Shown in pieces: positions 1,059-38,228 of a stretch of 41,546 nt of DNA. The first letter of the stretch is position 1, and each line of letters begins with the position of its first letter. A program made the position numbers and the translations under genes. The DNA comes from an uncultured bacterium. Lineage in GTDB: Bacteria > Elusimicrobiota > Elusimicrobia > Elusimicrobiales > Elusimicrobiaceae. The DNA is taken from the NCBI GenBank assembly GCA_949297775.1, contig CASFTM010000012.1, forward strand, positions 1-41,546. Direction: 5' to 3'. The notes below the pieces were generated by a model. That model saw only the letters and a program-made list of their open reading frames with translations, did no database searches and was not told the origin of the DNA.

Positions 1059-1781
1059 ATGAATAATCCGATGTTAAACGAAGCCGCCTTCCAACGCGCG
1101 CAGGAGCGCGCCGCCGCTGGCGGTGTAATGACACTGCAGGGAACTATCAACAAAACCTTCCTGCTATTGTTTTTGTGCGTAGTGGGCGGTATGATTACCT
1201 GGACCAACTACCAAAGCTGGGCCGCTTTTACGTGGCCGATTTTGATTGGCATTTGTGTAATGGCGGTGATTACCTCTTTTAAGCCGGCAGCCGCACCGAT
1301 TACCGCGCCCATTTACGCCCTGCTGGAAGGGATGTTGCTGGGGGTACTGTCGGCGATGTACAATGCGCAGTTTCAAGGCATTGTGTTCAATGCCGTAGCG
1401 GTAACGATTTTGGTGTTTTTTACGATGTTGTTCGTGTATCGCACGGGAATCATCCGCGTGACGCGCGGGCTGGCCGTGGGTATTTTTTCGGCAACGGCGG
1501 CCATTGCCCTGTTGTATCTAGGGTCTTTTATTCTGTCGCTTTTTGGAGTAAACCCGACGTATTTAACGTCCAATTCTCCGTTGGCGATTGGGATCAGCGT
1601 GTTCATCTGTGCGGTGGCGGCGTTCAACTTTTTGCTGGATTTCCGCTTTATTGACGCGATGACCTCCAACTATCAAGCCCCGAAGCATATGGAATGGTAT
1701 GCCGGATTTGGCTTGATGGTAACGCTGGTGTGGCTGTATATTGAAATTTTGGAATTATTAGCCAAATTACAGCGCAAATAA
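1059..1781 (+). CDS. BAX inhibitor-1 / YccA-family integral membrane protein
   Basis: A 240-residue protein with about seven hydrophobic segments after a polar N-terminus. The organisation and the NNPMLNEAAFQ start with an MTLQGTINKTFLLL first helix match the bacterial Bax1-I (YccA-like) branch of the TMBIM family. Members sit in the inner membrane as putative pH-sensitive Ca2+ leak channels or partners of FtsH proteolysis; the role here is inferred from family only. The ribosome-binding site is an unusual pure G run (AAGGGGGAAAT before ATG), a type shared in this window with the aaxC-like gene and the K+ channel gene. It could pair with the C-rich small RNA encoded at 17922-18023. A small CCCG/CGGG hairpin (1026-1036) precedes it. 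Confidence 0.85.
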   Translation: MNNPMLNEAAFQRAQERAAAGGVMTLQGTINKTFLLLFLCVVGGMITWTNYQSWAAFTWPILIGICVMAVITSFKPAAAPITAPIYALLEGMLLGVLSAMYNAQFQGIVFNAVAVTILVFFTMLFVYRTGIIRVTRGLAVGIFSATAAIALLYLGSFILSLFGVNPTYLTSNSPLAIGISVFICAVAAFNFLLDFRFIDAMTSNYQAPKHMEWYAGFGLMVTLVWLYIEILELLAKLQRK

Positions 1782-17921: not shown

Positions 17922-18023
17922 AAAAAAGAGCCGGGGGATGTGCCCGGCCCTTTGGTCAGAACCGTTCGGGGGGTAAATCGAAAGGTTCTGGGGGATAAAT
18001 TGCAGTTTCTATAGAGAAACTAT
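17922..18023 (-). ncRNA. Candidate trans-acting small RNA with C-rich anti-Shine-Dalgarno motifs
   Basis: A roughly 102-nt gene predicted from structure. The promoter is TTGCTT-17-TATGAT (18058-18030), putting +1 near 18023. The transcript opens with a perfect 7-bp hairpin AGUUUCU/AGAAACU with a 4-nt loop (18021-18004). Two 15-17-nt repeats of the type AUUUAYCCCCC(C)RGAAC follow, 22 nt apart (18000-17984 and 17978-17964). The second, with six Cs, sits in the roughly 20-nt loop of a hairpin closed by AGAACC/GGUUCU. The 3' end is a terminator, GCCGGG/CCCGGC (17948-17930) with U6. The stretch CCCCCCGAACGGUU (17973-17960) is perfectly complementary to the translation start region of the antiporter gene at 38228. 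No plausible protein is encoded. Function is inferred. Confidence 0.7.
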
Positions 18024-18029
18024 ATATTA

Positions 18030-18058
18030 ATCATACAACCTACGCCCCAAAAAAGCAA
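18030..18058 (-). promoter_or_regulatory. Promoter of the candidate small RNA
   Basis: Minus strand: TTGCTT (18058-18053), exactly 17 bp, TATGAT (18035-18030, five of six consensus bases), about seven bases before the 5' hairpin. Confidence 0.65.
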
Positions 18059-18167
18059 GATTTTAAACCCAAAAATTAAGGTCTAATTTGCTATAGTTAT
18101 TTTGTATTAATATTGTTTTTAAAAATTTAAAAATAAAAATTTTTAAAAACTTTTGCTTCCGATTGGT

Positions 18168-34243: not shown

Positions 34244-35011
34244 ATGCCACACACCGCACATACTGTAAAACACTATTTATACAATATTTTGCAATTTAAT
34301 AACCGCAGCAAAATTACCACCGCGCTCAATGCGCTAATTATCACGCTTATTTTGCTAAGCGTCCCGGTGGACGTGCTGGAAAGCGTACAGGACATCAGCC
34401 CCGTAGTAAAGCGGTGGATCTATCACCTGGATTTGGCAATGAGTATCATTTTTGCGCTGGAATATGCCCTGCGCGTAATTACCTGCACCGAAGATCCGCG
34501 CTTTAAGCGGCCTATCGTCGGGCGGCTGAAATACATATGCACGCCTTTAATGCTAATAGACTTATTCGCCATTTCTCCTTTCTTTATTTTGGGTACGGGT
34601 ATGGTGCGTATGCTGCGCGTGTTCCGTATTTTAATGCTGATGCGCTATACCAACGCCATACAGCTCGTCAACAATGTGGTAAGCGAAAAGAAAAGCGAAC
34701 TGGCCATTTGCGGCGCGTTTATTTTAATGCTGTGGGTGTGGAGCTCGTTTATGATTTTCCGCGTAGAACACGCCGCCCAGCCGGAAGTGTTTAAAAATAT
34801 GCTGGACGCGATGTGGTGGTCCTTGGAAACTTTTACCACGCTGGGCTACGGCGATATAGTGCCTATTACGCTTTTCGGACGGATGATTACGGCTATAACG
34901 GTGGCAATGGGGCTTATTTTGTTTGCTATTACTACAGCAGTGCTTACGGCGGGGATTGTACAGGAAATCCAAAAATTTGAACGCAAGAAACAACAGCCGC
35001 CGCAAGTATAA
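34244..35011 (+). CDS. Voltage-gated K+ channel-like ion channel
   Basis: 255 aa six-helix channel in the inner membrane. The S4 helix VRMLRVFRILMLMR (121-134) carries regularly spaced arginines as a voltage sensor. The pore loop ends in the K+ filter TLGYGD (199-204), followed by S6 and a short charged tail. Tetramers should pass K+ in response to membrane potential. The ribosome-binding site is TTGGGGGAAT, one of three G-run types in the window. It pairs for seven Watson-Crick bases plus a G-U with the first C-rich motif of the small-RNA candidate. Confidence 0.93.
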   Translation: MPHTAHTVKHYLYNILQFNNRSKITTALNALIITLILLSVPVDVLESVQDISPVVKRWIYHLDLAMSIIFALEYALRVITCTEDPRFKRPIVGRLKYICTPLMLIDLFAISPFFILGTGMVRMLRVFRILMLMRYTNAIQLVNNVVSEKKSELAICGAFILMLWVWSSFMIFRVEHAAQPEVFKNMLDAMWWSLETFTTLGYGDIVPITLFGRMITAITVAMGLILFAITTAVLTAGIVQEIQKFERKKQQPPQV

Positions 35012-36773: not shown

Positions 36774-38228
36774 CTAAATGCTCACCAGCCCGCGGGAAAA
36801 CACATAAATTGCCGACAGCGCGAACAACACCAACAGCACCGCCACTGCAACTTCGCCTTTGCTGAATACGGGTTTTCCGTCGTTCTGTTGGCGGCGCGCC
36901 CATACAAATACGGGTATGCCCGCCGCCAGGAAAATAACCGCCAAAAACAGGTATTTTAAGCCTGCCGCATACACCAGCCATACGCCGTAAAGCGTACCCA
37001 GCGTGGACGTAAACAGTGCTGCCGCGCGGCCTTTGGACGCAATTTTGGCGAACTCGCCGTCCTCGGTCATTTTCCACAAATAGGCCGTACTGGCAATGTA
37101 CGCCGGCAGCACCATCACGCCCGTGATGGAAAGCATCGTATTCCAGGCGTTGTTGGAAAAATAAACCATAAAAATAGCCAGCTGCATAATAATACTGGTC
37201 ACCCACAGCGACACGGACGGCGCCCCGTTTTTGTTTTGAATGGCAAACTGCTTGGGGAAGGTTCCGTTTTCAGCCGCGGCGGCGGGGATTTCGGCGGCAA
37301 TCATCGTCCAGGCCAGCCACGAAGAAAGCACCGCAATCAACAGCCCGATATTCATCACCCACGCGCCCCACGGACCGACGACTTTTTCCAACACGCCGGC
37401 GGTGGAAGGGTTGGCGACGGCGGCGATTTCTTCCTGCGTCAGAAATCCAAACGGCAGGACCGAAAGCCCGATGTAGATGACCAAACAGCCCAAAAAGCCC
37501 AAGAATGTGGCTTTGCTGACGTCGGACTGGCTTTTGGCGCGGCTGGATAACACAACAGCACCTTCAATGCCGATAAACGCCCACAGCGTAACCAGCATGG
37601 TACTTTTTAACTGGGCGGAAAGCGGGCCCAGCGTTTTGCCGTTTTCGGCGATATGGCCCCAAAAATTAAAGTCAAACTTATCCATATGAAAGCTAAACAG
37701 CAAGATAAGTATGAACAGCAAAAGCGGGACCAATTTGCCTATTGTACCGATGATGTTTAAAATAGCGGCCTGCTGCACGCCGCGCAGTACTACAAAATTA
37801 AACACCCAAATCAGCACAGACCCGCACACAATGGACAGCAAATTATTTCCGCCCGCAAAATATGGGGGGAAAAAGTAATTCAGCGCGTCCATGGTAATAA
37901 CGGCAAAGCCCACATTGCCAAAAATTTGGCACAGCCAATACCCCCAGCCGATAGTAAAGCCCACATACGGACCGAAGCCCTCGCGCGCATACATATAGAT
38001 ACCGGACGTCAAATCCGGCTTTACGCGCGAAAGAATGCTAAATGTGTTGGCGATGAAATACATCCCCACGCCGGTTACCACCCACGCCAACAGCACGGCC
38101 CCGGCGCTGGCGCCGGCGGCCATATTTTGGGGGAGGGAAAAAACTCCTCCCCCGACCATAGAACTTACCACAATGCACGCCAAGCCGATTACGCCCAGCT
38201 TGCCCGCCGTGTTGTTTTTATCTCCCAT
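36774..38228 (-). CDS. aaxC: APC-family arginine/agmatine antiporter, AaxC-like
   Basis: 484 aa with about 12 transmembrane helices of the amino acid-polyamine-organocation superfamily. SSMVGGGVFSLPQNMA in helix 1 is the substrate-binding GxG-F loop of the ArcD/AdiC-type basic amino acid antiporters. WAFIGIEGAVVLSSRAKS in helix 6 is also typical. It should exchange external arginine for the agmatine made by the neighbouring decarboxylase, exporting a proton equivalent. The gene ends the porin-decarboxylase-antiporter unit. Its ribosome-binding site is a G6 run only three bases from the ATG, embedded in a 14-base stretch perfectly complementary to the small-RNA candidate at 17922-18023. Confidence 0.88.
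   Translation of the reverse strand: MGDKNNTAGKLGVIGLACIVVSSMVGGGVFSLPQNMAAGASAGAVLLAWVVTGVGMYFIANTFSILSRVKPDLTSGIYMYAREGFGPYVGFTIGWGYWLCQIFGNVGFAVITMDALNYFFPPYFAGGNNLLSIVCGSVLIWVFNFVVLRGVQQAAILNIIGTIGKLVPLLLFILILLFSFHMDKFDFNFWGHIAENGKTLGPLSAQLKSTMLVTLWAFIGIEGAVVLSSRAKSQSDVSKATFLGFLGCLVIYIGLSVLPFGFLTQEEIAAVANPSTAGVLEKVVGPWGAWVMNIGLLIAVLSSWLAWTMIAAEIPAAAAENGTFPKQFAIQNKNGAPSVSLWVTSIIMQLAIFMVYFSNNAWNTMLSITGVMVLPAYIASTAYLWKMTEDGEFAKIASKGRAAALFTSTLGTLYGVWLVYAAGLKYLFLAVIFLAAGIPVFVWARRQQNDGKPVFSKGEVAVAVLLVLFALSAIYVFSRGLVSI

What the first reader, a model, noticed from the sequence alone, without database searches (positions are those of the whole stretch)
17922..18058. Undescribed small RNA gene with two C-rich anti-Shine-Dalgarno motifs
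The sequence shows a full transcription unit with no protein in it. It has a TTGCTT-17-TATGAT promoter, a 7-bp 5' hairpin right at the predicted +1, two 22-nt-spaced repeats AUUUAYCCCCC, the second in a hairpin loop, and a terminator with six Us. C-rich loops that bind G-rich ribosome-binding sites are known from Firmicutes sRNAs such as RsaE/RoxS, but I know of none for this kind of bacterium. The combination of all elements in the right order makes chance unlikely.
Basis: partly seen in the sequence, partly recalled or inferred. Interest (0 to 1): 0.8.

Follow-up and report, generated by a model that had tools for sequence, protein, structure and literature searches.

The report
Conserved C-rich small RNA in Elusimicrobiaceae
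A roughly 100-base RNA gene, unknown to the RNA-family library, is conserved through a family of gut bacteria, and its C-rich stretches match unusual G-rich ribosome-binding sites of enolase and an amino-acid transporter that have mostly changed in the sampled genomes where the RNA is missing or decayed, so it probably turns metabolic genes down.

Summary
Window 18058-17922 (-) contains TTGCTT-17-TATGAT, a 5' hairpin, AUUUAUCCCCC, a hairpin with AUUUACCCCC in its loop, and a terminator with six U. It is a real RNA gene: found in 30 of 37 sampled genomes of the genus (own included) by DNA search, and in three further genera of the family by covariance model. The stems change sequence while staying paired (16 of 22 pairs with two-sided changes). 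Promoter, loop and 5' C-rich stretch are kept; the 5' hairpin is confined to the closest relatives. No Rfam family matches.

The anti-Shine-Dalgarno idea gains comparative support. Enolase and a basic amino-acid antiporter carry GGGGG sites instead of the usual AGGAG: 16/21 and 22/22 genomes with an intact RNA, against 1/9 and 0/4 where it is absent, not found or decayed. Neighbouring genes: 1/111. In genus g15, enolase reads GGGGGUA in 14/14, up to a 10-bp perfect match to the loop.

Weak points: few independent evolutionary events, no transcript data, six g15 genomes with the G-rich site but no RNA found, no genome-wide loss of G-rich sites in an RNA-less genome, and in g15 the element lies just upstream of a dksA-like gene without a terminator.

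The parts
18053..18058 (-). -35 element TTGCTT
   Evidence: read; TTG(C/A)NN conserved in the 30 aligned relatives
18030..18035 (-). -10 element TATGAT, 17 nt from the -35
   Evidence: spacer exactly 17 nt in 25 of 30
17922..18023 (-). predicted transcript, about 100 nt; the +1 near 18023 is inferred from the distance to the -10
   Evidence: fold z-score -6.6; conserved family
18003..18022 (-). 5' hairpin, lineage-specific (window organism and nearest relatives only)
   Evidence: searches show it absent or unrelated in most relatives; a compensated version GUUCCC/GGGAAC in G020 (L012)
17990..18000 (-). first C-rich motif AUUUAUCCCCC, single-stranded
   Evidence: present in g1, g12, g15 and g16, shortened in some
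17957..17990 (-). hairpin CAGAACC-U-UUCG / CGAA-C-GGUUCUG
   Evidence: fold; 96.9% of cells paired over 41 sequences, 5 of 11 pairs with two-sided changes
17969..17978 (-). second C-rich motif AUUUACCCCC, the hairpin loop
   Evidence: nearly invariant in the genus; kept in other genera while the stem changes
17922..17953 (-). intrinsic terminator: 11-bp stem, CCCCC at the 3' side of the loop, six U
   Evidence: all 11 pairs with two-sided changes; U-tract missing in genus g15
36774..38228 (-). candidate target gene: basic amino acid/polyamine antiporter
   Evidence: NCBIfam TIGR00905, 568 bits
38229..38237 (-). G-rich ribosome-binding site GGGGGGAUU of the antiporter, predicted pairing site
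   Evidence: GGGGG in 22 of 22 relatives with an intact RNA

Best explanation
It is a stand-alone small RNA gene, about 100 nt. Shown by sequence comparison: own sigma-70-type promoter, two similar C-rich stretches (one free near the 5' end, one in a hairpin loop) and an intrinsic terminator, conserved as an RNA across the family Elusimicrobiaceae. Inferred: the C-rich stretches pair with G-rich Shine-Dalgarno sites (GGGGGUAA, GGGGGAU) of a small set of metabolic mRNAs, enolase and a basic amino-acid antiporter being the best supported, with glycerol dehydrogenase and others as candidates. Pairing hides the ribosome-binding site and lowers translation. The signal that controls the RNA is unknown.
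For: Conservation: DNA matches in 30 of 37 sampled genus genomes; covariance matches across g1, g12, g15, g16 and nothing above noise outside the family; exact core hairpin in 46 contigs of 84,980 species' genomes, those with informative titles all Elusimicrobia. Structure: 41 sequences, 97.3% of cells paired, covariation 0.494 against 0.153 shuffled and at most 0.130 slid. Promoter. Targets: GGGGG at enolase in 16/21 and antiporter in 22/22 genomes with intact RNA, against 1/9 and 0/4 where it is absent, not found or decayed (Fisher p 0.0016 and 7e-5); neighbouring genes 1/111. Predicted duplexes mostly -11 to -21 kcal/mol with the RNA, mostly -4 to -6 in RNA-less genomes. In g15, enolase GGGGGUA in 14/14; GGGGGUAAAAUG in three genomes is a perfect 10-bp complement of their loop UUUUACCCCC. 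The RNA is cleanly missing at an intact locus in G003, G063, G008, G066, G069.
Against: No expression data. The genomes lacking the RNA or with a decayed one fall in two neighbouring clades of the enolase tree, so the association may rest on one or two events and the Fisher values overstate it. Enolase and the antiporter were picked because they had GGGGG in the window's genome. G066 lacks the RNA at the locus but keeps GGGGGG at enolase; five genomes with the RNA lack GGGGG there. Six g15 genomes have the G-rich enolase site but no RNA was found; g16 has the RNA but no G-rich enolase site. The overall share of G-rich sites is not clearly lower in RNA-less G063 (5.3% vs 5.8% own), and a genome-wide pattern count differed only weakly. 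Swapping RNAs between genomes changed predicted energies little.
Confidence: 0.7

Rival explanations
1. It is a cis-acting 5' leader (attenuator or riboswitch-like element) controlling the gene downstream: ferredoxin/FeoB in g1, g12 and g16, a dksA-like gene in g15.
For: In g15 every located copy lies within about 100 nt upstream of a DksA/TraR zinc-finger gene and its second hairpin lacks the U-tract. In g1 and g12 ferredoxin and FeoB genes follow on the same strand in most loci.
Against: The downstream gene differs between genera, and some g15 copies sit in a different neighbourhood altogether. In g1 FeoB is 0.3-1.8 kb away behind a strong terminator; some loci have other genes between. Complementarity to unlinked mRNAs is not expected of a leader.
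Confidence: 0.15
2. The repeated UUUAYCCCC motifs are binding sites for an RNA-binding protein, and the RNA acts as a protein sponge (in the manner of CsrB) rather than pairing with mRNAs.
For: The same motif is presented two or three times, single-stranded and in loops; in one g12 genome a third UUUACCCCC lies in the terminator loop.
Against: A sponge does not predict the conserved complementary GGGGGUAA sites at enolase and the antiporter or their loss together with the RNA. No candidate protein was identified or searched for.
Confidence: 0.1
3. Only a promoter-like stretch and an orphan terminator in an AT-rich intergenic region, with no RNA function.
For: Promoter-like and terminator-like sites each occur about as often in the region as in shuffles; the C-rich 9-mer is not rare in the window.
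Against: Strong conservation of promoter, loop and stems with covariation across four genera.
Confidence: 0.02

Closest known systems
RsaE/RoxS (Staphylococcus, Bacillus)
   Same: Several C-rich regions that pair with G-rich Shine-Dalgarno sites to block translation (PMC4409812); targets in central metabolism.
   Different: No Rfam match to RsaE at E up to 10; different stems, order and phylum; motif here is UUUAYCCCC(C); no experimental data here.
6C RNA (RF01066; B11 in mycobacteria)
   Same: Runs of six C in a hairpin loop; in M. tuberculosis reported to bind mRNAs through C-rich loops (paper title cited in PMC8388888).
   Different: 6C has two stem-loops each with six or more C; here one C-rich loop plus one single-stranded C-rich stretch. 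Covariance score 15.2 against a gathering score of 47.
Scr3202 (RF02833, Streptomyces sRNA)
   Same: Best-scoring sub-threshold Rfam match: a C-rich-loop hairpin followed by a terminator hairpin of similar sequence.
   Different: 24.0 bits against a gathering score of 52, E 0.12; actinobacterial; probably convergent.
FsrA and IsrR (iron-sparing C-rich sRNAs)
   Same: C-rich anti-Shine-Dalgarno sRNAs (own knowledge; IsrR in PMC9410917); the present gene neighbours ferredoxin and the iron transporter FeoB in most genera.
   Different: No iron-responsive operator was tested or seen; the supported targets here are not iron proteins.
CCUCCUCCC-motif 'cuckoo' sRNAs and ar14/ar15 of Alphaproteobacteria
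   Same: Repeated exposed C-rich motifs in hairpin loops that resemble an anti-Shine-Dalgarno sequence (own knowledge; Rfam consensus).
   Different: Motif is CCUCCUCCC; ar14 21.2 bits vs 58.8 and ar15 14.2 vs 40.

Membership tests
trans-acting C-rich (anti-Shine-Dalgarno) sRNA, as a functional kind | own promoter and intrinsic terminator around a short non-coding unit | tested here: met
   met in g1 by sequence; in g15 the terminator U-tract is missing
trans-acting C-rich (anti-Shine-Dalgarno) sRNA, as a functional kind | exposed C-rich stretches conserved while stems vary | tested here: met
trans-acting C-rich (anti-Shine-Dalgarno) sRNA, as a functional kind | complementary, conserved Shine-Dalgarno sites in unlinked mRNAs | tested here: met
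   enolase and antiporter; phylogenetic independence is low
trans-acting C-rich (anti-Shine-Dalgarno) sRNA, as a functional kind | transcript exists and changes target expression | not testable with these tools
   no expression data for these organisms
RsaE/RoxS | match to the family's covariance model | tested here: not met
   absent from the list of matches with E up to 10
6C RNA (RF01066) | covariance score at or above gathering (47 bits) | tested here: not met
   15.2 bits
6C RNA (RF01066) | two stem-loops each with six or more C | tested here: not met
   one such hairpin loop; the terminator loop has part of a C5 run, and not in all relatives
Scr3202 (RF02833) | covariance score at or above gathering (52 bits) | tested here: not met
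   24.0 bits
any Rfam 15 family | gathering-threshold match for the window element or divergent relatives | tested here: not met
   only tRNAs elsewhere in the sequences searched

The most novel reading that the evidence does not exclude
A family-wide riboregulator of Elusimicrobiaceae that coordinates glycolysis and basic amino-acid exchange through a dedicated class of GGGGGUAA ribosome-binding sites, and that in one genus became joined to the 5' leader of a DksA-like transcription factor mRNA, so that one transcript could act both as leader and as source of the small RNA.
Probability: 0.3. Interest if true: 0.75.

Novelty: new member of a known kind. Interest (0 to 1): 0.55.

Why it matters
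No paper on a small RNA of Elusimicrobium minutum was found in the literature library searched, and Rfam has no such family. This is a conserved RNA with a concrete, testable target set in a poorly studied gut phylum. C-rich anti-Shine-Dalgarno RNAs in Firmicutes, actinobacteria, alphaproteobacteria and now apparently Elusimicrobiota would look like repeated independent invention of one solution. The joint decay of RNA and target sites gives a natural case for studying how a regulator and its sites are lost. A relative with a one-contig genome carries the RNA (G091); its length (1,643,562) equals, from memory, that of the cultured Elusimicrobium minutum Pei191.

Tried and rejected
Genome-wide enrichment of GGGGG sites as evidence for the RNA: rejected, because pattern counts differed only weakly between genomes with and without the RNA (p 0.036, phylogeny ignored, some absences being assembly gaps) and RNA-less G063 has about as many G-rich sites as the window organism. 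Ortholog-pair test of G-rich site conservation between three partly read genomes: too few shared genes (100 and 177 pairs; only enolase shared). Average duplex energy of the seeds at all starts: no excess against upstream or coding controls for the loop, slight for the 5' motif; many permutations pair better because they resemble the real anti-Shine-Dalgarno. Swap test for sRNA-target covariation: differences of 0.4-0.7 kcal/mol only. Multi-copy family in the genome: rejected, single copy. The three weak covariance matches (27-29 bits) that I read look like terminators only. dksA upstream regions in g1 and g12 do not carry the element.

Full report
What is there. On the minus strand the window shows, in order, TTGCTT-17-TATGAT (18058-18030), a short hairpin (18022-18003), AUUUAUCCCCC (18000-17990), a hairpin CAGAACC-U-UUCG / CGAA-C-GGUUCUG whose 10-nt loop is AUUUACCCCC (17978-17969), and an 11-bp terminator stem with six U ending at 17922. 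The predicted RNA, about 18023 to 17922, folds at z = -6.6 against shuffles. There is no ORF of 20 aa or more on that strand. The gene lies between a divergent ankyrin-repeat gene and, downstream on its own strand, FeoB, with a small ferredoxin between. No Rfam family reaches its gathering score at the element in the window or in divergent relatives; the weak matches include Scr3202 (24 of 52 bits) and 6C (15 of 47).

It is conserved. A plain DNA search found it clearly above the noise in 30 of 37 sampled genomes of the genus, counting the window's own, and once per genome. The aligned set keeps the promoter (17-nt spacer in 25 of 30), the 5' C-motif, the hairpin with its loop, and the terminator. 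A covariance model finds it in most genomes of the genus and in g12, g15 and g16 of the same family, and nothing above noise elsewhere in the phylum. The exact core hairpin occurs in 46 contigs from 84,980 species' genomes; those with informative titles are Elusimicrobia, one named Candidatus Avelusimicrobium excrementipullorum.

It is an RNA. Over 41 sequences 97.3% of paired cells are standard pairs; 16 of 22 pairs have two-sided changes; covariation is 0.494 against 0.153 in shuffles and 0.130 at best in slid controls (the alignment was fitted to the structure, which favours it). The unfitted alignment of the genus gives the same direction, mainly in the terminator. Across genera the stem is rewritten, for example GGACAUCUUCG/CGAAGAUAUCC and GAACUCUUCA/UGAGGAGUUC, while the loop keeps UUACCCCC in nearly all and the 5' stretch keeps UUUAYCCCC or a shortened form. 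In g12 the terminator loop shows a third C-rich stretch, UUUACCCCC in one genome.

Neighbourhood. In g1, g12 and g16 the gene sits beside the ankyrin gene with FeoB nearby. In g15 it lies within about 100 nt upstream of a DksA/TraR zinc-finger gene, sometimes beside the ankyrin gene and sometimes in an unrelated place, and the second hairpin has no U-tract. In g1 and g12 the dksA-like gene is elsewhere without the element. So the neighbour changes and the RNA stays, which argues against a simple leader of one gene, but in g15 a leader role is possible.

Targets. In about half of the window's genome, the usual Shine-Dalgarno is AGGAG; 46 of 787 predicted starts carry GGGGG (start choice was partly guided by G-rich sites). 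They include enolase, glycerol dehydrogenase, a probable butyrate kinase and the antiporter in the window (for enolase, glycerol dehydrogenase and antiporter; the kinase is my reading of its sequence). Orthologs of enolase and the antiporter were then read across the genus. With an intact RNA, GGGGG stands at enolase in 16 of 21 and at the antiporter in 22 of 22. Where the RNA is absent, not found or decayed in its 5' C-motif, 1 of 9 and 0 of 4 (genomes with an unclear locus left out). Starts of six neighbouring genes: 1 of 111. Absence is real in G003, G063, G008, G066 and G069, where ankyrin and FeoB genes stand at the usual place and the RNA is missing between them; G024, at first scored absent, has its contig end inside the RNA. 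In g15 all 14 enolase genes read GGGGGUA, and in G097, G098 and G111 GGGGGUAAAAUG is a perfect 10-bp complement of their loop.

Limits. The enolase tree puts absent and decayed genomes in two adjacent clades, so few events underlie the association, and the two genes were chosen for having GGGGG in one genome. One RNA-less genome keeps the G-rich site; five with the RNA lack it; six g15 genomes have the site without a detected RNA; g16 has the RNA without the site. The overall frequency of G-rich sites does not clearly fall in an RNA-less genome. No test of energy swaps or whole-genome counts gave more than weak support. Nothing here shows transcription, pairing or repression.

Verdict. A real, undescribed RNA gene family (confidence above 0.9), most likely a trans-acting C-rich small RNA that covers G-rich ribosome-binding sites (0.7). 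It works like RsaE/RoxS or 6C RNA would, but is not a member of either by covariance score.

Noticed in passing
L073:4732-5397, L076:4903-5625, L080:1181-1723: In genus g15 the DksA/TraR zinc-finger protein downstream of the element carries a long lysine-rich, histone-H1-like N-terminal tail in some species and none in others.
   Followed up: no
window 18071-18089 (-), upstream of the -35: About half of the aligned relatives share an AT-rich near-palindrome, AAATAAA-CC-TTTATTT (here AAATTAGACCTTAATTTTT), just upstream of the promoter; a possible operator or UP element.
   Followed up: no
G095, G100, G103, G107, G110, G112 (enolase loci L383, L373, L374, L367, L375, L369): Six g15 genomes have GGGGGUA enolase sites but no detected C-rich RNA; either a diverged copy was missed or another factor uses the site.
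   Followed up: partly
L237 (G032:C13:5480-6001): The basic amino-acid antiporter gene of G032 is interrupted by a TGA in the matched part, a pseudogene or assembly error.
   Followed up: no
L081:5309-5416: In G036 the terminator hairpin has an unusually long loop and is followed closely by a second hairpin (GCATACAGTTAAACTGTATGC).
   Followed up: no
window 34244-35011 (+) and 1059-1781 (+): Two more window genes with GGGGG ribosome-binding sites: an ion-channel-like protein and a membrane protein; candidate targets not checked in relatives.
   Followed up: no
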